The notes below the pieces were generated by a model. The model did no database searches. It saw nothing but the letters and a program-made list of their open reading frames with translations, and was not told where the DNA came from. This document shows, one piece after another, positions 16,969 through 62,083 of a stretch of DNA of 64,000 nt. Positions within the stretch are counted from its first letter, which is position 1; each line of letters begins with the position of its first letter. Made by a program: the position numbers and the translations under genes. The stretch comes from Mycolicibacterium lutetiense (GTDB lineage Bacteria > Actinomycetota > Actinomycetes > Mycobacteriales > Mycobacteriaceae), in the NCBI RefSeq assembly GCF_017876775.1, contig NZ_JAGIOP010000002.1, forward strand, positions 372,001 to 436,000. The letters are read 5' to 3'.

Positions 16969-17426
16969 CAGGACAAGCTCAAGTGCACCCGCGAGAGCAC
17001 TATCGTCGCGACGGCAACTGGCCGCCCAGAGTTTTGATCACCGGACTCGCATGAGGCCTGGCGTGTGGCTCGTCCAGTCGCTGCTGCGGCCCGCGGCGAG
17101 CCCTCCGCGCGGACGCTTGACTGATACGAGCCGCCCGTGAGGGTGGGGATTTCGTCGTGATTGCATCTGCGGACCTTCGACAGTTCGCTCGCCAGCAGGC
17201 ACGGGTGATGAAGCTTCGTACAGGGGAGCATTCGCCGTGGGAAGCGGTATCAAGTGCACGCTGTTGCGGCTGAGTCAAAATGTTGTGAAAGTGAAATTTG
17301 AGCTGGACGTTACATTTGTGACCGGAGTGAATTACGCTAGCCGTTAGTACGGTGTGACTACGTAAGTGATTGGCCTCGCCACAAAGTGCGTGGGCTGGCA
17401 TGAGGTCCTGACGGGTGGTGATTGGC
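16969..17426. other. Intergenic region before the NlpC/P60 gene
   Basis: No gene is supported. The 3' half contains a BlaI-type inverted-repeat candidate (17343-17366); the 5' half shows only shadow frames. Confidence 0.4.
17343..17366. promoter_or_regulatory. BlaI-type operator candidate (weak)
   Basis: GTTAGTAC, a 6-bp centre, ACTACGTAAG: TTAGTA and TACGTAA form an imperfect inverted repeat like the other BlaI-type boxes in this window. It is about 60 bp upstream of the NlpC/P60 start, so a cell-wall gene is the likely target. Confidence 0.35.
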
Positions 17427-18104
17427 ATGGTGCGCACCTGGCTCGCCGCCGTCCTAGTTTTGTTGCTCGGTACGATGACCCCGGCGGTCGCGACTGCCGA
17501 TAAGGGTGAATGGGATCCGACGTTGCCCAAGCTGATCAGTGCTGGAGCGCCAGGCGATCCGCTGGCGGTCGCCAACGCGTCGCTGCAGGCGAGCGCGATC
17601 GCTGCTCAGACGACGATGGATCTCGGGCGTTCATTCCTGAGCAGCCTGGGTTTCTCCGGTCCCACCAGTCCCGCGCCGCTGAGGGGGAATCGCGTCTATG
17701 GAGCGCAGGCGATCGAGTACGTAATTCGACGAGCGGGCTCCCAAATCGGAGTTCCCTACTCCTGGGGTGGCGGCAGCCTCACCGGCCCGAGTCGCGGTAT
17801 CGATTCGGGCGCTGGCACCGTCGGTTTCGACTGCTCGGGGCTGACACGTTACGCCTTTGCCGGAGTGGGTGTTCTGCTGCCGCGATACTCCGGAGACCAG
17901 TACACCGCCGGCCGTCACATACCGCCCTCGCAAGCCAAACGCGGGGACCTGCTGTTCTGGGGTCCCGGTGGCGGACAGCACGAGGCCCTCTATCTGGGTG
18001 GCGGGCAGATGTTGGAGGCCCAGCAGACCGGTGTGCCGGTCAAAATTTCGCCTGTCCGTACCGCCGGGATGACCCCCTATGTGACCCGAGTGATCGAAAG
18101 CTAG
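17427..18104 (+). CDS. NlpC/P60 peptidoglycan endopeptidase, RipD-like
   Basis: A secreted protein of 225 residues: signal peptide ending near AVATA (about residue 24), a short linker, then one NlpC/P60 domain. The catalytic Cys136 is in FDCSGLTRYAF and His185 in GQHEALYLGGGQM. RipD of M. tuberculosis is described as lacking the catalytic residues, so this copy looks active while keeping the RipD-like short architecture. The substrate should be the stem-peptide D-Glu/mDAP bond. ATG at 17427 is preferred; GTG at 17415 is an alternative. A BlaI-type box lies upstream. Confidence 0.88.
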   Translation: MVRTWLAAVLVLLLGTMTPAVATADKGEWDPTLPKLISAGAPGDPLAVANASLQASAIAAQTTMDLGRSFLSSLGFSGPTSPAPLRGNRVYGAQAIEYVIRRAGSQIGVPYSWGGGSLTGPSRGIDSGAGTVGFDCSGLTRYAFAGVGVLLPRYSGDQYTAGRHIPPSQAKRGDLLFWGPGGGQHEALYLGGGQMLEAQQTGVPVKISPVRTAGMTPYVTRVIES

Positions 18105-18362
18105 CGTATTCAGGTGACCCTAGCGGTTGCAGTTGCCGTTCACAGCCTGGTCGGCAGGCCCGCCACAACATCTGCACCGCCTCGGCAAGCGAACTACTAT
18201 CGTGGCCAGTAGATGAATGAGGTTCTGTGAAGCCATTGTTGAGGCCGTGTCTGATCAAGGGTGCGTGGCCATGGACCCTACGCGACACCCGAGCGCCCTG
18301 CGCGCCCAAGGCGCAATGGCATCGGGTTGTCGTTTGGGCCGCGACCGGGCAGGGCTCGGGGC

Positions 18363-18806
18363 ATGCATAGTCAACCTAGGCCGTCGAAGCGTGGAATGCC
18401 CGTATGGCTTATCGCGGCCACGGCGGTCGTGCTGTTGGCCGTGATCGTAGTAATCGCAGTGATGACACATGGTTTCGGGCTGGCCAACTCGAACGAACGT
18501 ATGGCACAAGCGCGGTGCGAAACTGATGTGCGCGCTCGGTTGGCATCACCGTCGAGCTCCAAACTCTCGGAGGTCAAAGCGACAGTAAGTGAGTTGGACC
18601 CCGACAGCCGAGACATGTTTCCACTCATCGGCAACGATTCGCTTAAAGGTGTTGATCATGGGCGGATCACGGTATGGAACGTCGCTGGCACGGTCGATGA
18701 ACAAACAGAGGTCGGCACCCTGATTCATGACCCGTTTACGTGCCGCGCGTATTTCGTCGACGGTGTCTTGGCCGATACCCTCGTGCTGTTCGACCACGCG
18801 CACTAG
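18363..18806 (+). CDS. Membrane-anchored hypothetical protein
   Basis: A protein of 147 residues with one transmembrane helix (about residues 13-34, WLIAATAVVLLAVIVVIAV) and an external domain: GLANSNERMAQARCETDVRARLASPSSSKLSEV, then WNVAGTVDEQTEVGTLIHDPFTCRAYF. Two Cys could pair. This is a common mycobacterial layout of unknown function. The ATG at 18363 gives a proper N-terminal anchor; longer frames only add Arg/Pro-rich sequence. Confidence 0.7.
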   Translation: MHSQPRPSKRGMPVWLIAATAVVLLAVIVVIAVMTHGFGLANSNERMAQARCETDVRARLASPSSSKLSEVKATVSELDPDSRDMFPLIGNDSLKGVDHGRITVWNVAGTVDEQTEVGTLIHDPFTCRAYFVDGVLADTLVLFDHAH

Positions 18807-18898: not shown

Positions 18899-21202
18899 AT
18901 GGCTGAGAGCACTGTGGTGCTTCATGTGGGTGGGTTGCACTGGGCTACCTCTGGTGGGATTGTCGAGTCGGCATTGCGGCGACGCCCCGGTGTGGTGTCG
19001 GTCGCGGCGAACGCGGCGAACCAAACCGCAACGGTGACCTATGACCCTGTACATACTTCGGTAGAAGCACTGTCGGGGTGGGTTCGCGAATGCGAAATGC
19101 ACTGTGCGGGCCAATCGGTACCGAACCATATGTGTGATCCGATGGCTGAGCCCGGACAGCATGCTGCCCATGGCGCGGTGTCGCCACAAGAAATGATGGG
19201 CCACGGCGGCCACGTCGGCATGTCGATGGACCACATGGTCCGCGATATGCGGAACCGATTCATCGTCGCGTTGGTCCTGTCGATCCCGATCATGTTGTGG
19301 TCACCGATGGGGCGCAACATGTTTGGGTTCACGCTGCCGGCGCCGTTCGGGATGCGCGATGACGTCTTCACGCTGCTGCTGAGTCTTCCAGTCGTCTTCT
19401 ACAGCGCATGGATCTTTTTCGATGGGGCCTGGCGTGCGCTGCGGGCTCGCACACTCGACATGATGGTGCTGGTCGCCGTCGCCGTCGGCGCCGGCTGGCT
19501 CTACAGCTTCGGTGTGACTCTGACCGGTGGTGGCGAGGTCTTCTACGAGGCGGCTTCGGTACTCACGACGTTCGTGCTGCTGGGGCATTGGTTTGAGATG
19601 CGTGCGCGCGGCGGCGCCAACGATGCCATCCGCACGCTGCTCGAGCTCGCACCGCCGACGGCGGTAATCGTGCGCGACGGCACGCCGGTAGAAGTGCCGA
19701 CTGCTGATCTGGTAGTCGGAGACCTGTTGTTGATCCGCCCCGGCGCAAAGATTCCGGTCGACGGCGAGGTGGCCGACGGGCATTCCGAGGTGGATGAATC
19801 CATGGTGACCGGCGAGAGCCTGCCGGTCACCAAAGACCCGGGATCGGCGGTGATCGGCGCCTCGATCAACACCACTGGCACGTTGCATGTGCGTGCCACC
19901 AAGGTGGGTTCTGACACTGTGCTCGCCCAGATCGTGCAGATGGTCCAGGAGGCACAGAATTCCAAGGCTCCTGGTCAGCGACTGGCCGACCGTGCGGCCT
20001 TCTGGCTGGTCCTGGTCGCTCTCATCGGCGGCGCGGCGACTTTCCTCGTTTGGTGGCTGGTGGGCGCAGGTGTCCAGACCGCATTGTTGTTTGCGATCAC
20101 CGTTGTCGTGATCACCTGCCCAGACGCGCTCGGGTTGGCGACACCAACGGCCATCATGGTGGGGACCGGCTTGGGCGCCAAACGTGGTGTGCTGTTCAAA
20201 AACGCTACGGCGCTGGAGACCTCGGCCCGCATCCAGACGGTGGTGATGGACAAAACCGGCACTTTGACCAAGGGTCAGCCGGCAGTGACCGATGTTGTCG
20301 TCGACGGGATCACCGAAGCTGAACTGCTAACTCTGGTGACCGCCGTCGAGTCGGCATCGGAACATCCGCTGGCCGCTGCGATCGTGCGTTACGCGGCGAG
20401 CCACGAAATAAGACCGACGCCGGTGGATGATTTCCGCAGCGTGCCCGGGCACGGCGCCACCGCCGTCGTGGAGGGTCGCAGCGTGGCCGTGGGAAACCGA
20501 AAATTGATGGTTGAGGAGAAGATTGATTTCGGGGCCCTCATGGCCAAGCGCGATGAGCTTGCTGCAGCCGGCCGTACCGCCGTGCTGGTCGCGGTGGACG
20601 GCCGGGGGGTGGGTGTGATCGCACTGGCCGACGCCGCCCGGGAAACGTCAGCGGCAGCGGTGTCAGCTTTGCATGAGCTTGGCGTGGACGTGGTGATGTT
20701 GAGCGGGGACAACGAAGCCACCGCGAAACGCATCGCCACCCAGTTGGCGATCGACAGCGTCATCGCCGACGTGTTGCCACGTGACAAGGCCTCAGAGATT
20801 GCCGCACTGCAGCGGTCAAACACCAAGGTCGCGATGGTTGGCGACGGCGTCAACGATGCGCCGGCCCTGGCACAGGCCGACTTGGGAATCGCAATCGGCG
20901 CAGGCACTGACGTGGCCATCGAAACCGCTGACGTGGTGTTGATGCGGTCAGATCCGCTCGACGTGCCCATCGCATTGCGCATCGGGCGAGCCACCCTACG
21001 GAAGATGCGTCAGAACCTCGGATGGGCAGTGGGTTACAACGTGATCGCGTTGCCGATCGCCGCAGGCGTTTTTGAACCGCTGTTCGGGTTGGTACTGCGT
21101 CCCGAGATCGCCGCGTTATCGATGTCAGGTTCGAGCCTGATCGTGGCGGTGAACGCACTGATGCTCAAACGCCTGAAATTGCCGACAGACCAACCGGCCT
21201 AA
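18899..21202 (+). CDS. P1B copper-type ATPase with degenerate HMA domain and CPD motif
   Basis: A protein of 767 residues. Residues 5-75 fold like an HMA domain but lack CxxC (GLHWATS replaces GMTCxxC). Residues 95-125 are His/Met-rich ([13 protein letters not shown]). Eight helices and the full P-type core follow: TGES, D451KTGT, SEHPLAA and GDGVNDAP. The transport-helix motif is C407-P-D409 rather than CPC or CPH. With the His/Met linker this fits a CtpV/CopB-like exporter of unusual metal preference. It may act in the periplasmic copper response with the neighbouring BlaI and CopZ-like genes. Confidence 0.88.
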
Positions 21203-21366: not shown

Positions 21367-21756
21367 CTATTGGCTCTTTGCCGGCTTCGACCGTCCCCGT
21401 CGGCCCAGTACCGTGCGAAGCCGTGCCGATCTGTCCGGACCGATCTGTTCGAGGAAGTAGCCGAGCACAACTTCAGCCTGTCCCCCGCCGTCGAGCGCCT
21501 CACACATGAGCCGGGCACTGTGCTGCTCACGGGTAAGAGTCGGCCAGTACCGGTAGGCTTTGCCGTCTCGGATCCGCTCCAACCACCCCTTGGTGTGCAG
21601 ATTGTCCATCGTCGACATCACGGTGGTGTAGGCGATCTGACGCTCGGCGCACAGTTCATCGCAGATGTCGCGGACCGTCACCGGCGTCTCAGATCGACGG
21701 GACCAGACGCGGTCCATGATCACCGCTTCAAGTTCTCCAAATCCGCGTATTCTCAC
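21367..21756 (-). CDS. BlaI/MecI-family repressor (copy 1)
   Basis: A protein of 129 residues with the BlaI winged helix: GELEAVIMDRVWSR, recognition helix IAYTTVMSTMDNLHTKGWLERIRDGKAYRYW, then the dimerisation helices. Closely similar to copy 2 at 35106-35501 over its first 100 residues. BlaI repressors are cleaved when an M56 (BlaR-type) sensor is activated; this copy has no M56 gene beside it, unlike copy 2. A CTACGT/ACGTAG palindrome (21827-21849) lies 71 bp upstream and may be its own operator. It lacks the Cys cluster of copper-sensing CopY. Confidence 0.88.
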   Translation of the reverse strand: MRIRGFGELEAVIMDRVWSRRSETPVTVRDICDELCAERQIAYTTVMSTMDNLHTKGWLERIRDGKAYRYWPTLTREQHSARLMCEALDGGGQAEVVLGYFLEQIGPDRSARLRTVLGRRGRSKPAKSQ

Positions 21757-21826
21757 TTCATCTCCCGGCAGCTTGGCAGCCAGCCTACGGTGTGCGCAGG
21801 ATCCTCGCAGTTCAAATACGTGTCCT

Positions 21827-21849
21827 CTACGTACTCCATAACCACGTAG
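21827..21849. promoter_or_regulatory. BlaI-type operator a
   Basis: Perfect inverted repeat CTACGT, 11-bp spacer, ACGTAG, 71 bp upstream of BlaI copy 1 and within its divergent region with the TlpA gene. Confidence 0.5.
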
Positions 21850-21925: not shown

Positions 21926-21944
21926 TACTATCTACGTACATAGA
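21926..21944. promoter_or_regulatory. BlaI-type operator b
   Basis: CTAT, CTACGTAC, ATAG: an inverted repeat centred on the palindrome TACGTA, about 40 bp upstream of the TlpA-like lipoprotein start. It could control the TlpA-CcdA operon. Confidence 0.45.
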
Positions 21945-21984
21945 ACGTAATTTGGCTTCTGGCCGATTCAGTGTCGGAGGGCTG

Positions 21985-22482
21985 ATGCCATACACCTGCG
22001 CGGCACGCGTGTTCGGTATCGCACTGATCGGTGCGCTGGCCACGGCGGGCTGCAGCACAGGCCGTGATGCCGTAGCTCAAGGCGGCAGTTTCGAATTCGT
22101 GTCACCCGGAGGCAAAACCGACCTGTTCTACGACCCTGCTCATATCTGGGGCTCATGGTGCGGCCCCTGCCGAACCGAAACGCCGCAGCTGGAGAAAGTC
22201 TTCGATGAGACCGAATCCCTGGGGGTGGCGTTCCTCGGTATCGACGTGCGCGACAGCCGCAGTGCTGCGACCGATTTCGTCACCGACCGCAATGTCCGGT
22301 ACCCCTCGATCTTCGACCCCCCGATGCGTAGCCTCATGGCGCTGGGCAAGGGATATCCGAGCAGCGTCGTCCCGACGACCCTGATACTCGACCGCCGCCA
22401 CCGTGTCGCGGCAATCTTTCTGCGCGCGCTGTTGGCTGAGGACCTACGTCCGGTCGTGCTGCGAGTGGCACGCGAATCGTGA
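21985..22482 (+). CDS. TlpA/CcsX-like thioredoxin lipoprotein, internally deleted
   Basis: A lipoprotein of 165 residues: signal peptide with lipobox LATAGC (Cys23), then GGSFEFVSPGGKTDLFYDP, the active-site WGSWCGPCR (Cys59, Cys62) and the C-terminal half of a thioredoxin fold. Compared with mycobacterial relatives about 35-40 residues between FYDP and WGSWC are missing in frame, which removes the first strands of the fold. It may therefore be non-functional or act in an unusual way. GGAGG at 21976-21980 fixes the ATG. Its stop overlaps the ccdA start (GTGA). Confidence 0.75.
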   Translation: MPYTCAARVFGIALIGALATAGCSTGRDAVAQGGSFEFVSPGGKTDLFYDPAHIWGSWCGPCRTETPQLEKVFDETESLGVAFLGIDVRDSRSAATDFVTDRNVRYPSIFDPPMRSLMALGKGYPSSVVPTTLILDRRHRVAAIFLRALLAEDLRPVVLRVARES

Positions 22483-23356: not shown

Positions 23357-23956
23357 TCAGGGACACATTCCTGCACAACATGGGCACGGCTGCAGTCCGT
23401 CGCAACAGGATCCACCAGCCATCGGCATGGATATCGGGCGCGACATCGGCATGGACATTTTCATGTCGCCGTTACAGCACCACATTAGCGCCGGCGCGGC
23501 ACCGCTGGTGGCATAGATGACGGCCATGGGATCGGCACCGGTGACATCGAAGTACAGCTTGCCTGCCGACCGTTGACCCTGCTCAAGGGTGCTGGGCGCC
23601 AAGCCGTTTGGGCTGGCAACCTGCCAGAGAACCTGATAGCGCTCACCGGTGGATGACACCGCGTACAGATTGGGGATGATCGGCGTCACGGTGCCGGTTA
23701 CCGCCTCAACGGTGGCGTCAGCCTCCCACAACCGCCCAGCCGACCCGTAGCCGCCTGGCTGGACAGCGCTGGCGCGCAGCCCCGACACCGACCACCCAGT
23801 GACGACCGCACCATTGGCGTCAGTCAGCCGTTGCACGGCACCGAACCGGTGCGGGCAGGGATCGGACGCCGCCGCTGCGCTGGGCGCACCCACAGCCCCG
23901 AGGACGACGAGCATGAGCATCGCGGCCACGGCGGCGAGCTTTGGAGGAATACGCAC
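23357..23956 (-). CDS. MPT63-like (DUF1942) secreted protein with Cys/Met-rich tail
   Basis: A protein of 199 residues: signal peptide to about residue 30, then an immunoglobulin-like domain (LTDANGAVVTGWSVSGL, ATVEAVTGTVTPIIPNLYAV, AGKLYFDVTGADPMAVIY) characteristic of MPT63/DUF1942. The last 40 residues (about 158-199) are unusual: eight Met and eight Cys, including CC, MKMSMPM, SMPM, CC and CPCC runs, which should bind several Cu(I) ions. Normal MPT63 relatives stop before such a tail. A CTACGG/CCGTAG palindrome lies 46 bp upstream. It probably captures copper at the cell surface. Confidence 0.82.
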   Translation of the reverse strand: MRIPPKLAAVAAMLMLVVLGAVGAPSAAAASDPCPHRFGAVQRLTDANGAVVTGWSVSGLRASAVQPGGYGSAGRLWEADATVEAVTGTVTPIIPNLYAVSSTGERYQVLWQVASPNGLAPSTLEQGQRSAGKLYFDVTGADPMAVIYATSGAAPALMWCCNGDMKMSMPMSRPISMPMAGGSCCDGLQPCPCCAGMCP

Positions 23957-24001: not shown

Positions 24002-24020
24002 TACGGACTTATGCCGTAGC
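24002..24020. promoter_or_regulatory. BlaI-type operator c
   Basis: Perfect inverted repeat CTACGG, 7-bp spacer, CCGTAG, about 46 bp upstream of the MPT63-like gene start. Confidence 0.45.
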
Positions 24021-25460: not shown

Positions 25461-25760
25461 CTAGCAGGACACGTCGAGATACACCGTCTTGTAAACGACC
25501 CGCTCAACGGTGTGTTCCCGGGTGTTCTTACGCAGCTCGGTGATATCTCGACCGGGCCGCACCGCCGCGACCGTGCAGCGGTCCAGTGGGGCTGCGCCCG
25601 TCTTGTTCATGATCACCTTGTAGCCACGTGACTCCAATGTCGACACGGTGTCTTGCACCGCTCCTGGTCCGGCGGGTGCGGCTGCGGCCAGGTGCGCCGG
25701 GCCCGCGAGCAGCAGGATGGTACAAGGACCGCCGATCGCGGCCACCACAAGTTTCTTCAT
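25461..25760 (-). CDS. Small secreted two-Cys protein (paralogue 1)
   Basis: A protein of 99 residues with a clear signal peptide (to about residue 30, ending AAA). The mature part shares a pattern with two other proteins in the window: a GYKVI-type strand, an NK.GAAPLDRCTV segment, AVRPGR and a C-terminal VYLDVSC. The two Cys probably form a disulfide. The function is unknown. ATG at 25760 is chosen because GGGAG lies 9 bp upstream. A CTACT/AGTAG palindrome lies 51 bp upstream. Confidence 0.8.
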   Translation of the reverse strand: MKKLVVAAIGGPCTILLLAGPAHLAAAAPAGPGAVQDTVSTLESRGYKVIMNKTGAAPLDRCTVAAVRPGRDITELRKNTREHTVERVVYKTVYLDVSC

Positions 25761-25810
25761 GGAAGAACTCCCTTCACGCACCGAGGTCTGCTATCACACT
25801 CCGTACGTAG

Positions 25811-25821
25811 CTACTTAGTAG
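25811..25821. promoter_or_regulatory. BlaI-type operator d
   Basis: CTACT, T, AGTAG, a perfect palindrome of 11 bp preceded by TACGTAG, about 51 bp upstream of the small secreted protein gene on the minus strand. Confidence 0.45.
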
Positions 25822-26036: not shown

Positions 26037-27302
26037 TCAGCGCTGGGCTGCCTCCATGGGTTGCTGCGCGACGCTGAGGTGTCCGCGGCGGTCGAGCAGG
26101 TAGATCGCCAAGGCGGCGATCAGACCCACCATCACCAGTCCACCCCACAGAAGTTCATCGGCGCCGGCGTCTCGCGCCGCCTGCAGCAGCGAGCCCGTCG
26201 CCAGATTCCCCACGAGGATGCCCACACCGACAATCGTGTTGTAGAACCCGTAGTGGGTGGCCACCAGGCGGCCGCCGGCCAAGGAGACGACGGTGTCCAT
26301 CTCGAACGGGAATACCGCCGCAGAACCGACCGCCAATAGCGCCGCGGCACATAGTAGGGCGATCACTGCGCCGGTCGTGCCGAAGCGGCCGGTGTCGGGA
26401 ACAGCGACCAACGGCAGAAATGACGCAGCCAAGATCGTCATTCCGATCACCAGGGCGCGTCCGTTTCCCCACCGCTGGGCGAACCAGCGGGTCAGGCGTA
26501 GCTGTCCGCCCACTGCCACGACTGCCGATACGACGAATACTGCGGCCACCACGGCCGACGAGTGCTCGGGGGCAATGGTGGCTGCGTGCAACGGCAAGGC
26601 CAGATAGACCTGGAAATTCAGCACATACGAGCCGATCATCGCCGCGGCAAAACAGACGAACGACCGATTCGACACCACGGTGCGCCAGTCGTCAATGATG
26701 GCTGTCTTCGCTGTCGATTCCGCCACACCCGAAACGTGTTGGGGCAGCATGAACAGCTGGGCGATCGTCAACACGGCGAACACCGCGGCCGCCGCCGCGG
26801 CGGCGGTGCGGAAGTCCAGTGCCATCAACGCCAGCCCCGCCAGCGGACCGGCCAGGATCCCGGCCTGATAGAAGACGTTGAACAGGGCGAACGCTTCCAG
26901 CCTGCGCGATTCAGAATCGGCTGCCAGGTAGGCGCGCACCGCGGGATTGAACAGTGCGCCGGCGAAACCCGTCGCTGCTGAGGCGATCACCAGCAGCGGC
27001 AGGGTGTGGGCGAACACCAGCAAACCGAAGCCCGCCGTGCGCAGCAGACAACCGGCGACGATGAGCGGTTTATAGCCGAATCGGTCGGCCAGGGTGCCGC
27101 CCACGATGAACATTCCCTGCTGGGAGAAGTTCCGAACGCCCAGGACCAAGCCGATCACCCACGCCGCCAGCCCGAGTGGACCGGCGAGGTAGCCGGCCAG
27201 GTAGGGCATGAGCATATAGAAGCCCAGATTGATGCCGAACTGATTGATCATCAGCATCCTGCTGGGCCAGCCGAAGGTCGTGAACTGGCGGAATACGCCC
27301 AT
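26037..27302 (-). CDS. MFS transporter, Rv0849-like
   Basis: A protein of 421 residues with twelve helices of the major facilitator family, similar in style to MdtH and the M. tuberculosis Rv0849 group. Start: the frame is open to 27350, but ATG at 27302 overlaps the stop of the cysK2 gene (TGATG), so coupling favours it. The gene order lpqS, cysK2, MFS on the minus strand is the one I recall for Rv0847-Rv0849. Efflux of a metal-thiol product or cysteine derivative is a reasonable but unproven role. Confidence 0.85.
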   Translation of the reverse strand: MGVFRQFTTFGWPSRMLMINQFGINLGFYMLMPYLAGYLAGPLGLAAWVIGLVLGVRNFSQQGMFIVGGTLADRFGYKPLIVAGCLLRTAGFGLLVFAHTLPLLVIASAATGFAGALFNPAVRAYLAADSESRRLEAFALFNVFYQAGILAGPLAGLALMALDFRTAAAAAAAVFAVLTIAQLFMLPQHVSGVAESTAKTAIIDDWRTVVSNRSFVCFAAAMIGSYVLNFQVYLALPLHAATIAPEHSSAVVAAVFVVSAVVAVGGQLRLTRWFAQRWGNGRALVIGMTILAASFLPLVAVPDTGRFGTTGAVIALLCAAALLAVGSAAVFPFEMDTVVSLAGGRLVATHYGFYNTIVGVGILVGNLATGSLLQAARDAGADELLWGGLVMVGLIAALAIYLLDRRGHLSVAQQPMEAAQR

Positions 27303-28411
27303 CAGCACCGACTCTCGACCGGATCGACGATATGGCGGGTCCGTGTCCAACGAGTGATGACGTGCGTGCCGGGATCGGCCACAAGCTCGGGATCGGCCGG
27401 GGGCTGGTTCTGTAACAGTCCATGGCCACGGCAGTAGTCGTCGTTGTAGACGGTGTCGAAATACCGCTGAGGGCCATCGGGGAACACTGCGGCTACCGTG
27501 GTATCGATCGGCTCAGCACCCGCCACCCAACCGGCGACGAGCGCTACCGCCCCCACGCTCCAGCCGCCGCTGGCGTAATGCGTGGCGGCCAGGGTGCGGC
27601 AGGCCCACACCGCCTCCTCGGGGGCCACCCAGTGGACTTCGTCGAACGCCCCGTAGTCGACGTTGCGCGGGTAGATGCTCGATCCCAGTCCTCGCATCAG
27701 CCGGGTGGCCGATGGCTGACCAAAAATGGTCGAACCGACGGTGTCCACACCCACCAACCGTAGATCAGGGTTGAATTCCCGCAATACCCGCGCCACCCCG
27801 GCAGAGTGTCCCCCGGTACCCACCGAGCAGACCAGCACGTCGATATCGCCGAGTTGCGCGCGCAGTTCCAGCGCCAGTCCACGATAGGCGGCGACGTTGT
27901 CGGGGTTGTTGTACTGGTCGGGATACCACGAATGGCGATGGGTGGCCAGCAACTCGACTACCCGGTCGCGGCGAGCCTGCTGCCATCCACCTTGGGGATG
28001 AGGTTCGCGCACTACCTCGACATCGGCGCCATAGGCGGCCAGCATCCGGTGCATGATGGGCTCCATGCCAGGGTCGGCGACCAGGGTCACCGGGTGACCG
28101 TAAACCGTCCCGGCCAAAGCAAGTCCTAAACCTAATGTGCCGCTGGTGGATTCAATGATCCGGGCACCGGGGCGCAGGTCACCTCGCGCGCGTCCCCGCT
28201 CAACCATGTGCATGGCGGGGCGGTCTTTCATTCCGCCGGGGTTGAAGCCCTCCAGCTTGGCCCAGAATCCCCGCGCATCGGCGGTGAACGGCTCGGATAT
28301 CCGCAGCACCGGGGTGTTGCCCACCATTGATGCGACTCGTTGATCGCCGGCCAGCCGATTGGGGCCTGCGGCCAGATCTTTGGCGGCAGAAACAGACAGA
28401 ACTTCGTTCAT
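27302..28411 (-). CDS. cysK2: PLP-dependent CysK2-like cysteine/S-sulfocysteine synthase (copy 1)
   Basis: A protein of 369 residues of the O-acetylserine sulfhydrylase fold: Schiff-base Lys62 in [10 protein letters not shown], the [12 protein letters not shown] loop, the phosphate-binding VGTGGHSAG and the C-terminal VFPDGPQRY. It resembles mycobacterial CysK2, reported to make S-sulfocysteine from O-phosphoserine and thiosulfate. It is about 70% identical by eye to copies at 31432 and 47874. It sits between an lpqS-like gene and an MFS gene, a copper-locus arrangement. The start at 28411 precedes the conserved core. Confidence 0.88.
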
Positions 28412-28518
28412 GGACACACAGCTCCTGTGATGTAGCCGCACGTAGCGCACGGCGTAGTGGTCGACGAGCAGGCGGGCGGGCACCGGCGCAGGCCGTTAGG
28501 CCGCGGGCGCCTGCCTGC

Positions 28519-28950
28519 TCAACGCCGATCGATACAGAAGCGGACCAGCATTTGCCAGCCCGAGGGCCTATTGGCTCCCGCGTGCAGCGGAGGCCCCCGT
28601 TGCGTCGCTGCTGCGGCACACATCTCGCAAAGCCACAGCGCGGCTAGCCCGGCGGCGACAGCGAGAAGCGCCAGAACCGTCGCGGCCCGCGGCAACACCG
28701 CCGCGGCAGAGGTATCCGGGGCCGCCACCGCGTCGTCTCGTTGAACGTGGGGATGATCCAGGCTGACGACTGCCGCTGCCCCGGTCGCAGCGGCCAGCAC
28801 ATGAGGCGCGTGGCGCTGCGTACCGCCGCTGGACACGGCTCCGGTCAGTCCGGCACTGACGATCATCAGCAGGGCAACGACACCCAGCGTGGTCGCCGAC
28901 CGCAACCACGCCGTCCCAGAAACGGTTTTGTGCCCCACAGTGTTAACCAC
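28519..28950 (-). CDS. LpqS-like membrane/secreted protein (copy 1)
   Basis: A protein of 143 residues: N-terminal signal-anchor helix, a His-containing middle part with several His and Asp, a second helix (about residues 90-110) and a basic C-terminus ending LVRFCIDRR. The final [LF]C[IV]xRR motif is shared by three proteins in this window and by M. tuberculosis LpqS as I recall it. LpqS belongs to the RicR copper regulon. The next gene downstream is cysK2. A CTACGTAG palindrome (28973-28980) is 23 bp upstream of the start. Confidence 0.7.
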   Translation of the reverse strand: MVNTVGHKTVSGTAWLRSATTLGVVALLMIVSAGLTGAVSSGGTQRHAPHVLAAATGAAAVVSLDHPHVQRDDAVAAPDTSAAAVLPRAATVLALLAVAAGLAALWLCEMCAAAATQRGPPLHAGANRPSGWQMLVRFCIDRR

Positions 28951-29304
28951 AGTAGCAGCCAGTACTGCCTCACTACGTAGATGATCTAGTCGATGCCAGG
29001 ACGTTACGGGTTTGCGACACCATGACGGAACAACCCGGATGCCTGGTCATCGCAGCGACCAGCCCCCTCCAAGCATGAAAATGTGAACTTCCCCAGAATC
29101 GGGTCCACACAGCAAGCGGTCGCGGGGGGGGCTGGGCCGCACTTGCCTCGCCGCTGCGTTCGCTGAATTGCGGCTGGTCGCACCTGCCGGCCAAGCGCAG
29201 GTGGGTGTTCACGCGGGCGGGCCGCCCGGGTTCTGATTCGGGATGTCGGTGATGGGCAGGTTGGGCGCTGGCTTGGGTGATGCGGTAGGCGGCAGCGTCG
29301 GTGT
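28951..29304. other. Intergenic region with BlaI-type site
   Basis: No gene is supported; the segment contains the 28973-28980 palindrome near its start. The frames here are Ala/Pro/Arg-rich shadows. Confidence 0.4.
28973..28980. promoter_or_regulatory. BlaI-type operator e
   Basis: CTACGTAG, a perfect 8-bp palindrome inside ACTACGTAGATGATCTAGT, 23 bp upstream of the first LpqS-like gene. Because it is short it may be half of a larger site. Confidence 0.4.
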
Positions 29305-32532: not shown

Positions 32533-32998
32533 CTATCCAAACGCGGTACTTGGGTTAAGTCGAGGATCTGTGCACGGTGCCCTGATGATCTGCAGTTGGT
32601 ATCCGTAGGCCTCGTGACGTGTCCGTAGCCACACATGCCCCTTGCGCCCTCGACGGCCTTCGCGTCAACGCCGGTTCGCATGAAGGAACGGCTGAGGCGC
32701 AACCCGAGCTAGGGTGATCGGACCGGCACCTCAGCCGCCCAGCGCATACTATCTTAGATAGTAGATGCCGAAAGTTCGCGTGCCCACGTCCTTCTGTCGT
32801 GGCAAGACTGCCAGGCCTGCAGACACCGAGGCGGCTTTCGAAGGACGCTGGAAACGCCGGGAGCGTCACTCACATACCGGCGCGACTCGCAAGAATGCTT
32901 GCAGCCATCTCCCGGAGTGCACGAATGCACCTCGCCGGGGCACGCACAAATCCACGTGCCGCCGCCGGCCCCGCCCAACTACCCCAACTATCAAGTAA
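32533..32998. other. Intergenic segment with a perfect BlaI-type palindrome
   Basis: No gene is supported. The palindrome at 32747-32763 has no clear downstream gene; an IS remnant begins 236 bp after it. A coding sequence may have been lost here. Confidence 0.45.
32747..32763. promoter_or_regulatory. BlaI-type operator h (perfect)
   Basis: TACTATCTTAGATAGTA, a perfect 17-bp palindrome apart from its central base. The best-matching box in the window, but no intact gene follows on either strand within 200 bp. Confidence 0.55.
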
Positions 32999-34170: not shown

Positions 34171-35109
34171 TCAACTACAGAGCAGCCCAGATGCGCCAAG
34201 GGCGAAGGTGCCCATCGGGGCCAATGCGATGAGAGTGGTGGCGCCGGCGAGGCCGACGCGCGCACCCAGGCGTTTACCCGAGGCGGGTGGGCGTGCCAAA
34301 CGTTCGGCACGACTCAGCAACGCGACATCAGCGGCGCCGAGGGCCTCAGCCGGTGCGGCACCGGCAAGGGCCAGCAGTCCCGCGAGCAGCGTGCGCTGGC
34401 CGTAACGACGGGCGGCGGCATCGTCGGCACACATTTCCAGCAATCGCGTAACGTCGGTGGCTGCTCGGGTCATCAATGCCACCCGCGGCAACACCATTGC
34501 CAGACTGCGCAGCACGGTCACTATCGTGGCATGGTGTCCATCGAGGTGCGCCCGTTCGTGAGCCAGCACCGCCGCTAACTCCCGAGGATCGAGAGCGGCG
34601 ACCGCGCTGCTGGTGACAACGATCGCCGGCGGGTTGCCGGCCACGCAATAGGCGGTGCGCTGCTCGGCATCAACGATGTAGACATGGGGTTGGTCGGTTG
34701 GCCGTCCGACCAGGCGCGCCGCTTGGGCGTGAGTGTCGGCATGGGCACGCAACCGGAGAATGGTGTGCAGCAGTTTCACCCCAAGGCCGATCACAGCGAC
34801 GATCAGGGCAAGCGCCGCCGTCAGTAGCCCCAATTGTGCTGCGCCGCCGGCCCGTCCGGCCGCCAGATCGCACAACAACTGCATACAAGAGGTCAGCAGC
34901 GAACCGTGCTGACTGCCGTGGGATAGCACCTCCAGGGCCACCAGAGCGGGAATGGCGATCCCGGTTGCCAACACGCTGCCGATCGCGGTCAGCCACGCCA
35001 CGATGCCGAACCTGGGCGCCGATCCGCCGCGGGTGAGGAAGCCGAGCGCCTTTGGCCCCAACGCCACCATCACCATGCTGAAAATCAGCAGGCAGGCGGC
35101 GACGCTCAC
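34171..35109 (-). CDS. M56 (BlaR1-like) membrane metallopeptidase, copy 1
   Basis: A protein of 312 residues with transmembrane helices and a cytosolic zinc-peptidase domain carrying HERAH (residues 184-188). It lacks the penicillin-binding sensor domain of BlaR1, as do many actinobacterial M56 proteins. Its start overlaps the stop of BlaI copy 2 (ATGA), so the two form the repressor/peptidase pair expected for BlaI systems. Activation would cleave or release BlaI. What it senses cannot be read. Confidence 0.85.
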   Translation of the reverse strand: MSVAACLLIFSMVMVALGPKALGFLTRGGSAPRFGIVAWLTAIGSVLATGIAIPALVALEVLSHGSQHGSLLTSCMQLLCDLAAGRAGGAAQLGLLTAALALIVAVIGLGVKLLHTILRLRAHADTHAQAARLVGRPTDQPHVYIVDAEQRTAYCVAGNPPAIVVTSSAVAALDPRELAAVLAHERAHLDGHHATIVTVLRSLAMVLPRVALMTRAATDVTRLLEMCADDAAARRYGQRTLLAGLLALAGAAPAEALGAADVALLSRAERLARPPASGKRLGARVGLAGATTLIALAPMGTFALGASGLLCS

Positions 35110-35501
35110 CGCTTCTTCGCCCTGTTCGACCGCCTGGCCAGCGTGCGCAGCGCGGCGCGCAACCGATCGGAGTCCTGCGGGTCGATCTGCTCGATGAAGT
35201 AGCTGAGAACCAGGTCCGACTGCCCACCGCCGTCGAGGGCCTCACGCATCAACTGAGCCGAATGTTGCTCGCGGTTCAGGGTCGCCCAGTAGCGGTATGC
35301 CCGGCCGTCACGGTCGCGCTCCAACCAACCCTTGGTATGCAAGTTGTCCATCGTTGACATCACGGTGGTGTAGGCGATCCGCCTCTCATCGGCGAGCTCG
35401 TCGAAAATGTCGCGCACCGTGACCGGCTCTGGGTCACGATTCCAGATGCGATCCATGATGTCGGCCTCGAGTTCACCGAATCCCCGTACGCGCACTGTCA
35501 C
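35106..35501 (-). CDS. BlaI/MecI-family repressor (copy 2)
   Basis: A protein of 131 residues, very similar to copy 1: winged helix with RRIAYTTVMSTMDNLHTKGWLE and AYRYWATLNREQHSAQLMREALDGGG. GTG at 35501 follows GGAGG directly; the much longer frame up to 35870 is an artefact. It overlaps the M56 gene downstream. An ACTAC/GTAGT inverted repeat (35876-35897) lies further upstream. It is a candidate repressor of the boxed promoters in this window. Confidence 0.88.
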   Translation of the reverse strand: MTVRVRGFGELEADIMDRIWNRDPEPVTVRDIFDELADERRIAYTTVMSTMDNLHTKGWLERDRDGRAYRYWATLNREQHSAQLMREALDGGGQSDLVLSYFIEQIDPQDSDRLRAALRTLARRSNRAKKR

Positions 35502-35943
35502 CCTCCACGATCGTTGTTGTGAGCCTACCTCGACGCGCCTGTGCTCCGCCGACTCGACGCGTCGGCAACCACACAACGACCTGTGTCGATGAGGCGTCAG
35601 GGGTCCTCGCGCGGATGCCGTATCAACAACAGGCCGAGCACGATCAGTAAGGCGGCCATCGGGAATTCGAGCGCCATTCAGTCCGCGCTCCGACCCGGAG
35701 ACCGGCCAGGTGCGCAATCGGGTGGGCAACGGCCATGGCCGCTCCGACCAGCACTGCGAGGCCTGCGATCGCGCGCCGATCTTCAGGAGTGAACGTTTTC
35801 GATGGCCGCCTAGAGTCGCGAGATTGGGTGGATGCATGCTGGGCTGAGCGCGCAGAGCTGCGGCTGGCAAGGACGACTACATGGATGGGTACGTAGTACT
35901 GCCGGGAGTCGTTGTGGACCGGAGCTCAAGGGTGAGCATTGTG
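35502..35943. other. Intergenic region between BlaI-2 and the second M56 gene
   Basis: No gene is supported. It contains one box-like inverted repeat at 35876-35897. Long frames here are shadows or low-complexity. Confidence 0.4.
35876..35897. promoter_or_regulatory. BlaI-type operator i
   Basis: ACTAC, 12-bp spacer, GTAGT: an inverted repeat in the same style as the other boxes. It sits about 375 bp from the BlaI-2 start, so a long leader or a lost gene is implied. Confidence 0.35.
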
Positions 35944-42662: not shown

Positions 42663-43764
42663 GGTTCAGGCAGCCGTGCGACACATTGGTATTGCCCTGA
42701 GCCCAGACGGTGCTCTCCAACTGATGCAGATAGATCCCGTCGGTGCTTATACGGGTGGCCCAGGAGATCGTTTCGCGGTATCCCAGCCGGGAATTGATCG
42801 GCAGGCCGTAGGTCGAGGAGTCCATCACCACGGGATTGGCCTTGTCCATCACCGTGTAGATGCCGCGCTGGGTCCAAAATGAGAGGGTTTGTCCGTTGAC
42901 CGTCTCGGTGCCGCCCATGCCCATCGAGGTCGGCATGGTGCGGACCAGTTGGCCGTTGTTGAACACGCTGACCTGCTTGGTGGCGTCGTCGGCGATGGCG
43001 ACGTGTGCGTCGCCGATGACAAAGCCCACATGCACATCCTCTTGCCCATACAGGCCCCCACCCAGGGCCGCTCCGTAGATGTTGGCCTGCACCGTCACCG
43101 CGGTTCCCGGGGCGAAGTACTGCGCCGGGCGCCAATGCACAGTCTGATTGTCCAGCCAGTACCAGGATCCGGTCACCGCCGGTGCAGTCGACACCACCAA
43201 GCGCCGCTCGGCGGCGGCCTGGTCGACGATCGGTTCATCAAAGCGCGCCACCACGACCGTGCCGATGCCGTAGGTCGCGCCGTCACGCACGTCGGCGCCC
43301 GACGTCGTGGTCAGCCGGACCCGGGTCTGATTGCCCGGAACCAGCGTCGAGAACGTCGAAACACGTTGCAGCCGGGCCCCGTCAGGGGCGGTGGCGGTCG
43401 CGGTGACGGTGTAGGTGCGTCCATAGCCCAGCGGCACAGCAGGCTTCCACACCGCACCGTCGGGCGTGGTGACGCCGACGATGCGGACGCCCTGTTCGTT
43501 AGTCATCGCGACCTCTGACAGCGAAGCAAAGCTCGCCGACACCCTCACCGGGCCCAGTGGGTCCACATCGGTTGCCCCCAGACCCGGGGAGATCACCAGG
43601 TCGGCCGGCGGCCGCGGCGCATCGGCGCTGTGCTGGTAGCTGCCGCCCGCGCGATCACACCCCCAACAGTGCGAGAGGCCCACGGCGACAACCACCCCGA
43701 GCGTTCCGGTGAGCACCAGCACCACGGCCAACACCCGCACGCCGATTCGGCGGTCCACGGTCAC
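42508..43764 (-). CDS. L,D-transpeptidase, LdtMt2-type
   Basis: A protein of 418 residues: signal anchor, two Ig-like domains, then the YkuD catalytic domain with [24 protein letters not shown], where Cys365 is the nucleophile. LdtMt2-type enzymes make 3-3 cross-links in peptidoglycan. An SHC near the start may be a lipid-anchor site. A very strong 43-bp palindrome (43817-43859) lies 53 bp upstream and contains the TCTACTA/TAGTAGA box, so regulation by BlaI is likely. Confidence 0.9.
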   Translation of the reverse strand: MTVDRRIGVRVLAVVLVLTGTLGVVVAVGLSHCWGCDRAGGSYQHSADAPRPPADLVISPGLGATDVDPLGPVRVSASFASLSEVAMTNEQGVRIVGVTTPDGAVWKPAVPLGYGRTYTVTATATAPDGARLQRVSTFSTLVPGNQTRVRLTTTSGADVRDGATYGIGTVVVARFDEPIVDQAAAERRLVVSTAPAVTGSWYWLDNQTVHWRPAQYFAPGTAVTVQANIYGAALGGGLYGQEDVHVGFVIGDAHVAIADDATKQVSVFNNGQLVRTMPTSMGMGGTETVNGQTLSFWTQRGIYTVMDKANPVVMDSSTYGLPINSRLGYRETISWATRISTDGIYLHQLESTVWAQGNTNVSHGCLNLNPDNARWFYDFSQPGDVVEVRNTGGEPLQVWQNGDWSVPWEQWVKGSALR

Positions 43765-44081
43765 ACCAGCCTCCCGTCGCGGAGCAGCCGCGCATGCCCC
43801 GTCATCTGAACTACACCGATCACATCATCTACTAAGCTACATAGTAGACGATGTGATCGTCGCCGCCTCGGCTCACCGTGCGATCGGCTTAAGGTGACGC
43901 CTCCCAGGCCATTAGGCGGACGTGGGCTCTTGCACGCGACAGCGGCCGTTCGGGCCGGTCCCGCATCACGGCAACCCGCAATGTCCTCCACGGCCGGTCC
44001 GCACAGGCCTGATGCGACACCTCTGTGTGACGGGCCCCGAAGGCATCGCAGGACACACCGGCTGGTTGCTTTCCCGGTGGC
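43765..44081. other. Intergenic region with 43-bp palindrome
   Basis: Holds the 43817-43859 inverted repeat; no gene is supported in the remainder, which separates the L,D-transpeptidase start from the mmcO stop. Confidence 0.5.
43817..43859. promoter_or_regulatory. BlaI-type operator l, 43-bp palindrome
   Basis: 18-bp arms with one mismatch around a 7-bp centre: outer CGATCACATC / GATGTGATCG and inner TCTACTA / TAGTAGA. The inner part matches the box at 61987-62014. Its length would suit two repressor dimers. Confidence 0.65.
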
Positions 44082-57858: not shown

Positions 57859-57874
57859 CGACCCTTCCTTTCAA

Positions 57875-60263: not shown

Positions 60264-60603
60264 AGCTATATGTTCCGAAATCCAAGTAATGCCGTCACTA
60301 CATTCATGCCGTTCCCATATAGTCCCTGTTGGCGGCCGTCACCGAATATTGCCGCTGCGTGAAATTAATCCCAACCTGCCGCGAATCAACGTCAAATCGC
60401 ATAACTCGAAGGCACTGTCGAATCTCGGATGGGGGCACCACAATTCCATGAAACCGCGACGCCGCACCGTAAACCGGTGAGCGTTCTCCTGTCGCCACTG
60501 GTGGCTGAGCCACAGAAGTTGTCTATTCAGAAACTCGATGTTGTCCTCAGCGGAGCCATGCGGTGCGGGTCTCGATGTGCGCCGGAGCCTAGCGCTCTCG
60601 CAG
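60264..60603. other. Intergenic, no supported gene
   Basis: Somewhat AT-richer than its surroundings. Short frames only; probably the promoter of the response regulator and the terminator region of the DUF305 gene. Confidence 0.4.
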
Positions 60604-61251
60604 CTACAGTGACTTGAGAATCTCCTGCATGGTGGCGATCTCCTCATGCTGGGCGGTGACGATCGAACGCGCCAGAGTCACTGCCGCAGGAAACTGGCCA
60701 CCGTCGATCTCCTGCTGGGCCATCGTGATCGCGCCGTTGTGATGCTCAATCATTTGAGTGAGAAACAACTTTGAGGCCTCCACCCCCTGGGCGGCGCGCA
60801 GAGCGGTCATATCTTGCTCGGTCATCATGCCCTCCCCCATGGTCGCCATACCGTGGCCGGGCATGGTTGGCATCCCGGTCGCCGATGGCATCGCCGGGAC
60901 GTCCCACTCGGTCAGCCATTGCGACATCTGATCGATCTCGGGGTCCTGAGCAGCTTTGATGGCGTTGGCCAGCGACACCACGCGCGGATCGACGCCCTGC
61001 TTGGCCAGGATCATGTCCGCCATTTCGACTGCCTGCCGGTGATGGGGGACCATGCCCTGTGCAAACGCCACGTCGGCGCCATTGTGGGCCTGTGTCGGGG
61101 CGCTGCTCGCGGGCGTGGTGAGTGGTGATGGCGTCAGCGATGCCATCACCGAACTGTCATGAGCGGCATCATCGCTACCGCTGCAGCCGCTCACCGTCAG
61201 CGCGATGCCCATCACCCCGGCAGCTACAGCAGCCATACGCTCTGCACGCAT
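60604..61251 (-). CDS. DUF305 lipoprotein
   Basis: A protein of 215 residues: signal peptide with lipobox LTVSGC, then a DUF305 domain with the paired His segments VPHHRQAVEMADMIL and IEHHNGAITMAQQEID. A Met/Gly/His-rich loop (MPGHGMATMGEGMM) lies between them and may bind copper. DUF305 proteins are often found in copper-resistance loci. AAAGGAC precedes the ATG at 61251. Confidence 0.9.
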   Translation of the reverse strand: MRAERMAAVAAGVMGIALTVSGCSGSDDAAHDSSVMASLTPSPLTTPASSAPTQAHNGADVAFAQGMVPHHRQAVEMADMILAKQGVDPRVVSLANAIKAAQDPEIDQMSQWLTEWDVPAMPSATGMPTMPGHGMATMGEGMMTEQDMTALRAAQGVEASKLFLTQMIEHHNGAITMAQQEIDGGQFPAAVTLARSIVTAQHEEIATMQEILKSL

Positions 61252-62083
61252 TTCGTGTCCTTTCGTCGCCCCAGACCACATAGGCACGATGCCTTACCGC
61301 CCAGCGTCGCCGTTGTTTGGCCGCCGCTGTCTCAGCTCCTCTCCAGGGTGACCGCCGAATCTTGTGACCAGTTCGGCTTTCGATAAAGAGTCGGTAAAGA
61401 AACCCGCTCGGCGCCGCGCCGCAATACACGGAGTCGGTACATAAGTAGCATGTGCCGACATCTCGTGGTAGGCCTCCCGCGGTGTCCGACGCGCGATGAG
61501 TCGACCACGTCGCCACGGCGAGGTCGGCGTGCGTAACTCACAGGGTGGGGATCCTGGAGGCGCCGGTGAACATCACCCCGCGGCACCTCGGATATCCATC
61601 ACGCGGTCGGGTACATACGATCGATGCGCGAGCCCATCGATCCTCGGCGACGCGGCCGCTCTACGCCGTCGCTGCGCTGGCTCCAAGACTCGTGGATGTG
61701 CAGTCAACTTGTACAGCACCGCTTGCATCGGCTGCACCCGACTCGACTTCTCACACACGGTTGCCACGGGAAGAAGTGCCTGCTGAGCAGTAGACCGCAC
61801 CAGGCACGGTCCTAGAACACTTTGGGTATGGTCAGCAGGAGACGAAATGGGTTTGCTCCCTTTCGCTTTATGAAATCTTCATCGAAGGACTAAGGCAGCT
61901 ACATCCCCAGCGGGCACGCTAGAGGCTAACGCGATCACGATGGGAAAGTAACGAAGCCAGCGACCCCTTCACCATCAAAACAGAAATCTACTATATCCGT
62001 ACGTACCTAGTAGACTGTCGTGCATGCGCTGCGCAGCCCGTTCGCACGGCCATTTCGTCTACACCCTGCGCTGAGGAGGCACC
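61252..62083. other. Long intergenic region before the L,D-transpeptidase
   Basis: 832 bp without a supported gene. The last 100 bp hold the TCTACTA/TAGTAGA box. Short frames inside are shadows. Confidence 0.45.
61987..62014. promoter_or_regulatory. BlaI-type operator m
   Basis: TCTACTA and TAGTAGA arms separated by 14 bp, with GTACGTAC inside the spacer. Lies 70 bp upstream of the L,D-transpeptidase start, equivalent to the inner arms of operator l. Confidence 0.55.

What the first reader, a model, noticed from the sequence alone, without database searches (positions are those of the whole stretch)
17343..62014. A candidate BlaI-type operator network across the island
Inverted repeats with CTAC/GTAG or TACTA/TAGTA arms occur at 17343, 21827, 21926, 24002, 25811, 28973, 32747, 35876, 38154, 38346, 43817 and 61987. 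Nine lie within about 90 bp upstream of a start: NlpC/P60, BlaI-1, TlpA, the MPT63-like gene, a small secreted gene, LpqS, the TlpA-partner membrane gene, the RipA fragment and two L,D-transpeptidases. Two BlaI repressors and two M56 peptidases are encoded in the same window. This would be a locally clustered regulon for copper and envelope stress.
Basis: partly seen in the sequence, partly recalled or inferred. Interest (0 to 1): 0.85.

Follow-up and report, generated by a model that had tools for sequence, protein, structure and literature searches.

The report
Conserved BlaI copper and cell-wall regulon
A gene island in a mycobacterium carries the same 17-letter candidate repressor site in front of many of its copper-handling and cell-wall genes, and related bacteria keep that site next to the same repressor, so it is very likely a real control circuit rather than a chance pattern.

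Summary
The variable-spacing CTAC/GTAG repeats are pieces of one fixed 17-bp dyad, TAC-N11-GTA. The window has 18 copies against 2.35 in shuffles, 16 of them intergenic. Of 118 genome-wide TACK-N9-MGTA copies, 17 lie in this 64 kb (expected 1.2).

In 79 related loci this dyad is the commonest of 1600 upstream of blaI (49 of 79). It recurs before nlpC/p60, L,D-transpeptidase, lpqS, tlpA, mpt63-like and response-regulator genes, but rarely before operon-internal ones. Across 118 genomes site density rises with BlaI gene number (rho 0.59). Presumed core BlaI promoters keep the frame with inner bases TACKAC-N5-GTMGTA (20 of 20); island arms rarely have that AC, paralleling a recognition-helix switch.

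Best reading: BlaI repressors, paired with M56/M48-like proteases lacking a penicillin-binding domain, control a copper and thiol/cell-wall regulon. Binding, inducer and protease action are inferred. New variant of a known kind.

The parts
17333..17364 (.). tandem overlapping operators TAC-N11-GTA (17333 and 17348, 15 bp apart), upstream of nlpC/p60
17415..18104 (+). NlpC/P60 secreted peptidase (DCSG visible)
   Evidence: Pfam PF00877; sequence
18195..18211 (.). operator upstream of the 18261/18396 gene, with a Cu-type P-ATPase further downstream
19193..21202 (+). copper-type P1B ATPase (TIGR01511 590.9 bits, cut-off 397)
21367..21756 (-). BlaI-1 repressor
   Evidence: PF03965 73.3 bits, cut-off 22.6
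21817..21848 (.). tandem overlapping operators (21817 and 21832) upstream of blaI-1
21933..21949 (.). operator in the blaI-1/tlpA-1 divergent promoter region
21985..22482 (+). TlpA-like thioredoxin (WCGPC), followed by a CcdA-like gene 22479-23273 (DsbD_TM below cut-off)
   Evidence: sequence
23357..23956 (-). MPT63-like DUF1942 protein with Met/Cys-rich tail
   Evidence: sequence
24002..24018 (.). operator upstream of the DUF1942 gene
25461..25760 (-). small secreted-looking protein gene
   Evidence: no Pfam match; conserved cluster of 19
25804..25820 (.). operator upstream of the small secreted-looking gene
26037..28950 (-). lpqS (28519-28950), cysteine-synthase-like (27302-28411) and MFS (26037-27308) genes, same order as Rv0847-Rv0849
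   Evidence: NF052429 LpqS 105.7 bits, cut-off 35; the other two by best, below-cut-off NCBIfam matches; Rv order from PMC7924339 passages
28963..28979 (.). operator upstream of lpqS
32747..32763 (.). high-scoring orphan operator between a second cysteine-synthase-like gene and a transposase
34171..35109 (-). M56/M48-like membrane protease (HERAH), overlaps the end of blaI-2
   Evidence: sequence
35106..35495 (-). BlaI-2 repressor
   Evidence: PF03965; PDB 2g9w E 9e-18
35875..35902 (.). degenerate operator (GAC-N11-GTA at 35875-35891), lines up with the blaI operator of L008-L017
35944..36849 (-). second M48/M56-like membrane protease (HEHAH)
   Evidence: same cluster as the first; sequence
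37004..38151 (-). TlpA-like (37004-37621) and its membrane partner (37621-38151)
38164..38180 (.). operator 13 bp upstream of the membrane-partner start; heads the same-strand run partner-tlpA-M56b-blaI2-M56a
38338..38354 (.). operator upstream of the 38449 gene, whose end overlaps the start of the Cu-type ATPase 39246
39246..41600 (+). copper-type P1B ATPase with YHS and HMBD domains
42508..43764 (-). L,D-transpeptidase 1 (SHGC)
   Evidence: PF03734/PF17964; sequence
43830..43846 (.). operator upstream of L,D-transpeptidase 1, highest matrix score
53179..53195 (.). operator 144 bp (centre) upstream of a DUF4189 gene (52612-53043)
61989..62005 (.). operator upstream of L,D-transpeptidase 2
62084..63061 (+). 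L,D-transpeptidase 2 (SHGC)
   Evidence: sequence
63347..63363 (.). weaker candidate operator (one arm TGC) upstream of a Cys-rich DUF326 protein 63380-63787
   Evidence: matrix score 12.6; PF03860

Best explanation
The 17-bp dyad TAC[G/T]-N9-[A/C]GTA is the operator of island-type BlaI repressors. BlaI dimers sit on single or overlapping sites (offsets 7, 8 or 15 bp), mostly 25-150 bp before start codons, and repress their own genes together with copper and envelope genes: lpqS-cysK-MFS, operons with Cu-type ATPases, tlpA/ccdA, mpt63-like, nlpC/p60 and two L,D-transpeptidases. Derepression most likely comes from proteolysis of BlaI by the neighbouring M56/M48-like membrane protease, which has its HExxH motif but no penicillin-binding domain. 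The likely trigger is copper, or damage copper does to exported thiol enzymes. Shown: the motif, its enrichment, its recurrence, its linkage to BlaI, and the gene content. Inferred: binding, repression, protease action, operon structure and inducer.
For: Window enrichment and spacing; 17 of 118 genomic copies in 1% of the genome; 18 TAC-N11-GTA in 64 kb against 13 in 280 kb of 14 other stretches of the genome. Commonest of 1600 dyads in 300 bp upstream of blaI, 49 of 79 loci, median 4. 216 of 1490 genes have a site upstream against a mean of 20.3 at seven other spacings; 183 of 1220 against 24.4 at eight other spacings after removing alike promoters within families. By family after that: BlaI 38 of 71, NlpC/P60 23 of 40, L,D-transpeptidase 17 of 32, membrane partner 6 of 8, DUF1942 4 of 6, LpqS 3 of 7, TlpA 4 of 13, response regulator 9 of 26; against M56 1 of 19, P-ATPase 1 of 30, CysK 0 of 18. 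Site density against BlaI number over 118 genomes: rho 0.59 (0.58 without the own genome), reversed-pattern control 0.18, p 0.05. The frame is upstream of presumed core BlaI in 20 of 20 genomes. A third BlaI operon of this genome has two overlapping sites in front, with an L,D-transpeptidase gene diverging from it. Shared AYTT-M recognition core, subfamily switch STMDN/TVLQR. An M56-cluster gene starts within 1.5 kb downstream of BlaI in 59 of 79 loci. LpqS and Cu-ATPase models over cut-off.
Against: No binding or expression data. Genome-wide the dyad is not over-represented: TACK-N9-MGTA occurs 118 times and the same pattern read backwards 364 times, so the case rests on clustering, position and recurrence. 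Upstream of blaI, GC-rich dyads come fairly close (GCG-N10 41, CCG-N3 39 of 79). blaI-2 itself has only the degenerate site near it and would depend on that or on 38164. The multicopper oxidase, DUF305 and both two-component systems of the window have no exact site upstream. 30 of 79 loci lack an exact dyad in the 300 bp before blaI; some have one before an upstream gene, and L069 has no TACK-N9-MGTA at all. The loci were retrieved by six BlaI peptide patterns, one of them MSTMDNLH, so invariance of that stretch is partly built in. The 118-genome correlation is not corrected for kinship. Copper as inducer rests on gene content.
Confidence: 0.77

Rival explanations
1. The dyad is the site of some other regulator that travels with these islands (for example a two-component response regulator), and its link to BlaI is indirect.
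For: Response-regulator genes are common in the loci and 9 of 26 de-duplicated ones carry a site. No direct binding data.
Against: The dyad is the commonest upstream of blaI itself. L028, L044, L080 and L083 have BlaI, M56 and one site but no response regulator called in the stretch held (some are short contigs). Presumed core BlaI promoters share the frame in 20 of 20.
Confidence: 0.1
2. The chromosomal core BlaI (Rv1846c type), not the island BlaIs, binds the island sites.
For: Same outer frame TAC[GT]-N9-[AC]GTA.
Against: Inner bases AC are on 40 of 40 core arms but 27 of 702 island arms. Recognition helices differ at positions 47-51 in 81 of 81 against 20 of 20 proteins. Site density is lower in the 71 genomes whose best match is only of the weaker, presumably core, kind.
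Confidence: 0.06
3. A classical BlaR1-BlaI beta-lactam-inducible system whose targets include L,D-transpeptidases.
For: BlaI beside M56-like proteases; L,D-transpeptidases among the targets.
Against: No penicillin-binding domain in either protease at E<0.01 (301 and 312 aa); several other targets are metal or thiol genes.
Confidence: 0.1
4. Composition artefact or chance palindromes in AT-richer intergenic DNA.
For: Other TAC..GTA offsets are raised in intergenic DNA too: 3 (334), 10 (225), 6 (137), 21 (133), 7 (114), 18 (105), against a median of 42; I read these as parts of composite sites, which is not proved for each.
Against: Offset 14 (N11) is the highest, 377, against 46 in two and a half times as much coding DNA; sites follow gene families and BlaI number.
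Confidence: 0.01

Closest known systems
Mycobacterial core BlaI (Rv1846c) regulon
   Same: Same protein family (PDB 2g9w, E 9e-18; that 2g9w is Rv1846c is recalled). In this genome the presumed core BlaI also has an M56-like neighbour. Same 17-bp outer frame 62-94 bases before the BlaI match in 20 of 20 genomes.
   Different: Inner operator bases, recognition-helix residues 47-51, and targets: reported core targets include Rv1303 of the ATP-synthase operon and Rv2151c (PMC12565901 passages) and rv1305/atpE as predicted (PMC7924339 passages).
MecI-MecR1 / BlaI-BlaR1 of staphylococci
   Same: Repressor family (PDB 1okr, MecI, E 1.6e-4); repressor gene beside an M56-like protease gene.
   Different: No penicillin-binding domain; TAC[GT] arms 14 bases apart rather than TACA/TGTA 7 apart. 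The scissile Asn-Phe (recalled) is Ser-Tyr in BlaI-2 at the aligned place and Gly-Tyr in BlaI-1; the third BlaI of this genome has Asn-Phe.
CopY/CopR copper repressors
   Same: Same repressor superfamily controlling copper export.
   Different: No Cys-X-Cys in BlaI-1 or BlaI-2; NCBIfam CopY 34.7 bits for BlaI-2 against a cut-off of 121.95; operator RNYKACANNYGTMRNY (PMC7253601 passages) has different spacing.
RicR copper regulon of M. tuberculosis
   Same: The lpqS-cysK2-permease genes are RicR-controlled there (PMC7924339 passages; lpqS also in PMC10961391 passages).
   Different: Different repressor family; no CsoR/RicR-family gene in the window (three elsewhere in the genome). RicR boxes were not searched for.

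Membership tests
BlaI/MecI (Penicillinase_R) repressors | PF03965 domain over the curated cut-off | tested here: met
   BlaI-1 73.3 bits, BlaI-2 81.5 bits, cut-off 22.6
BlaI/MecI (Penicillinase_R) repressors | binds a dyad in its own promoter | tested here: inconclusive
   dyad present before blaI-1 and recurrent in relatives; binding not testable here
Staphylococcal-type bla/mec operator | TACA-NN-TGTA core | tested here: not met
   fourth base is A on 1 of 32 arms of the 16 intergenic window sites, and spacing is N11
BlaR1/MecR1 sensors | M56 protease with HExxH | tested here: inconclusive
   HExxH present in both; Pfam M56 below cut-off in one and absent in the other, M48 over cut-off in both
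BlaR1/MecR1 sensors | extracytoplasmic penicillin-binding domain | tested here: not met
   no such domain at E<0.01
CopY/TcrY copper repressors | C-terminal Cys-X-Cys motifs | tested here: not met
   sequences; NCBIfam CopY 34.7 against 121.95 for BlaI-2
RicR/CsoR regulon | CsoR-family repressor at the locus | tested here: not met
   three PF02583 genes in the genome, none in the window
RicR/CsoR regulon | RicR box in the promoters | not tested
   no published box was seen in the held papers
Core mycobacterial BlaI operator | TACKAC-N5-GTMGTA | tested here: not met
   outer frame shared; inner AC on 27 of 702 island arms against 40 of 40 core arms

The most novel reading that the evidence does not exclude
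A mobile 'copper-proof cell wall' module. A BlaI/M56 pair without a beta-lactam sensor responds to copper (or copper-poisoned thiols) and switches on spare exported cysteine-dependent enzymes (L,D-transpeptidases, NlpC/P60, TlpA) together with copper export and cysteine supply. Paralogous BlaI regulons are kept apart by an inner-base code read by recognition-helix positions 47-51.
Probability: 0.35. Interest if true: 0.8.

Novelty: new variant of a known kind. Interest (0 to 1): 0.66.

Why it matters
BlaI-family proteins are known as repressors of beta-lactamase or copper-export genes (own knowledge; passages). Here a multi-copy BlaI family with its own 17-bp candidate operator appears to join copper resistance and peptidoglycan remodelling on islands of mycobacteria and Nocardia. 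Copper is reported to inhibit L,D-transpeptidases in Vibrio cholerae and Escherichia coli (PMC11390936 passages), and mycobacterial walls rely heavily on such enzymes (own knowledge), so the link is physiologically sensible. The operator code gives a way to find regulon members and to test how paralogous repressors stay insulated.

Tried and rejected
Arms at any spacing, as the finding states them: for CTAC..GTAG, N11 (4 against 0.13), N12 and N3 (2 each) are raised and the other spacings hold 0 or 1. Strict TACTA-N7-TAGTA: three in the genome, two in the window, too strict to define the regulon. CopY-type metal sensing: not supported, no CXC. beta-lactam sensing through the protease: not supported. 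Chance: made very unlikely by spacing controls.

Weak points of method. Gene calls come from a home-made codon model, so starts are approximate; it missed blaI-1 in the window and the blaI of L032. Control spacings are not all neutral: over the 79 loci, N-core spacings 5 and 13 give 131 and 61 against 17-52 for the other six and 351 for the motif. The related loci are not independent; removing alike promoters within families (and promoters cut short by contig ends) gave 183 of 1220. The core promoters were picked by me from the weaker matches, 20 of them, and are so alike that TAC-N8 and GTG-N8 also reach 20 of 20. The core proteins are 19 of those 20 genomes plus this genome; one locus (L067) was dropped from that alignment for length. 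The 351 'island' sites include coding and chance copies. L107 and L108, which lie by other BlaI-type sites, were left out of the 280-kb control; they hold 2 and 4 TAC-N11-GTA.

Literature: searches. Of only 20, 15 and 12 rows of 254, 814 and 324 matching papers were listed. No listed title or abstract start described a BlaI copper and cell-wall regulon; this is not proof of absence. The Rv1846c regulon paper (Sala 2009) was seen only as a reference, so its published operator could not be compared. PMC3944814 and PMC6196517 are not held. Six papers (PMC12565901, PMC7253601, PMC8265638, PMC7924339, PMC11390936, PMC10961391) were looked into by passage search only, and PMC8265638 gave no passage; none was read whole.
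Full report
Setting. The window is bases 372001-436000 of contig C2 of a 6.35 Mb genome; the nearest relatives of its BlaI-2 are in mycobacteria. It carries ISL3-type and other transposases, repeated cysteine-synthase-like genes, three P-type ATPases, a multicopper oxidase, LpqS, two TlpA-like proteins, a CcdA-like protein (below cut-off), NlpC/P60, two L,D-transpeptidases, two BlaI repressors and two M48/M56-like membrane proteases. LpqS scores above its NCBIfam cut-off; two ATPases fit the copper subfamily better than the cadmium one, and the third (14174-16117) fits cadmium better. There are four BlaI-family genes in the genome, two of them in the window.

The motif. N0 and N9 are also raised, less strongly. 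In the 16 intergenic sites the fourth base of the arm is G or T on 31 of 32 arms. TACK-N9-MGTA occurs 118 times in the genome, 17 of them in this window, with 1.2 expected; its reversed pattern occurs 364 times, so the dyad is clustered here, not over-represented genome-wide. Fourteen other 20-kb stretches of the genome hold 13 TAC-N11-GTA in 280 kb, one of them 202 bases beyond the window end.

Recurrence. In 79 loci around relatives of BlaI-2, TAC-N11-GTA is the most frequent of 1600 arm-and-spacing combinations in the 300 bases upstream of blaI (49 of 79; next TAC-N0 45 and GCG-N10 41; median 4). Of 1490 genes called in these loci, the window and three small loci of this genome, 216 have TACK-N9-MGTA between 200 bases upstream and 30 into the gene, against a mean of 20.3 for seven other spacings; with alike promoters removed, 183 of 1220 against 24.4 for eight other spacings. 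Sites are common before blaI, nlpC/p60, L,D-transpeptidase, the TlpA partner, DUF1942, LpqS, TlpA and response regulators, and rare before M56 (1 of 19), P-ATPase (1 of 30), multicopper oxidase (1 of 27), DUF305 (1 of 18) and CysK (0 of 18). 78 of 79 loci have at least one site and 63 have three or more. Site centres lie 25-150 bases before the called start in 219 of 263 cases. Pairs of sites within 60 bases are 7, 8 or 15 bases apart in 43 of 51, as expected of overlapping operators with fixed phase.

Linkage to BlaI. All 118 mycobacterial genomes examined have at least one BlaI-like match at E <= 1e-15; 47 have one at E <= 1e-30, which I call island-type. Density of TACKN9MGTAGA is 3.80 per Mb in those and 2.27 in the other 71 (p 5e-9), and rises with BlaI number (rho 0.59; the reversed-pattern control gives 0.18, p 0.05). 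This is not corrected for kinship. Upstream of 20 presumed core BlaI genes, TAC-N11-GTA lies 62-94 bases before the BlaI match in 20 of 20. These promoters are alike, so this shows presence rather than independent discovery. The third BlaI of this genome (thioredoxin/DsbA-like, CcdA-like, BlaI, M56-like order) has two overlapping sites before its operon, with an L,D-transpeptidase gene on the other side.

An operator code. Core arms read TACKAC on 40 of 40 arms, island arms on 27 of 702. In the proteins, A41, Y42, T43, T44 and M46 are invariant in both groups, while positions 47-51 are STMDN in 81 of 81 island-type and TVLQR in 20 of 20 core proteins. The retrieval patterns included MSTMDNLH, so the island invariance is partly selected; the third BlaI of this genome was found by Pfam model and has STMDN too. 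The reading that these residues set the inner bases is inference.

The individual places. 35876 is not an exact dyad; one arm is GAC instead of TAC, and it lines up with the operator before blaI in L008-L017. Between it and blaI-2 lie remains that match, in pieces, a small-protein family that sits before blaI in L018. 32747 is a high-scoring site with no credible gene; in L018 and elsewhere the order is LpqS-CysK-MFS-site-small secreted gene, and the first copy in this window keeps that order, so 32747 is probably the remnant of a second such cassette cut by a transposase (inference). 38217 and 54571 score low, and 17886 is not among the 45 best matrix scores, so these may be chance. 63347, just before a Cys-rich DUF326 protein, is a weaker candidate.

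Mechanism. BlaI dimers on these sites would block transcription. The proteases beside BlaI keep HExxH but show no penicillin-binding domain, so the input is unlikely to be a beta-lactam sensed as in BlaR1. BlaI-1 and BlaI-2 have no CXC motif, so direct copper sensing as in CopY is unlikely. The targets point to copper: LpqS-CysK2-permease is a RicR-controlled copper operon in M. tuberculosis, and two copper-type ATPases follow genes headed by a site. Several other targets carry an exported catalytic or redox cysteine motif: both L,D-transpeptidases (SHGC), NlpC/P60 (DCSG) and TlpA (WCxPC). Copper is reported to inhibit L,D-transpeptidases in Vibrio cholerae and Escherichia coli (PMC11390936 passages). 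A regulon that replaces copper-poisoned wall enzymes is therefore a reasonable but unproved reading. Genes without an exact site (multicopper oxidase, DUF305, both two-component systems of the window) suggest that other regulators share the island.

Verdict. It is a new variant of the BlaI/M56 kind of regulatory system, with a distinct candidate operator and target set. No description of it was seen in the rows listed by the searches.

Noticed in passing
L108:1730-4751 (G000:C2, about 2.88 Mb): A third BlaI-M56 operon with DsbA-like and CcdA-like genes, two overlapping operators and a divergent L,D-transpeptidase gene, outside the island.
   Followed up: partly
window 49882-50874 and 56825-57817: Two ISL3-type transposase genes identical in DNA flank part of the island; with three cysteine-synthase-like copies this suggests a composite, rearranged element.
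   Followed up: partly
window 63380-63787: A Cys-rich DUF326 protein resembling copper-storage proteins (resemblance recalled), with a weak operator just upstream.
   Followed up: partly
L022:8578-8778 and relatives (cluster c18): A family of small proteins without Pfam match in the one scanned has the highest share of operators upstream (9 of 11); remains of a copy lie between the 35876 site and blaI-2.
   Followed up: partly
window 23357-23956: The MPT63-like protein ends in a Met/Cys-rich tail that looks metal-binding.
   Followed up: no
L040, L056, L076, L077, L084 upstream of blaI: Nocardia operators show TAC-N4-TAC-N4-GTA-N4-GTA, two nested dyads with a 7-base period.
   Followed up: partly
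G080:C1:4273442-4273828: Another species' genome carries a BlaI-2 99% identical to this one, suggesting recent transfer of the island.
   Followed up: no
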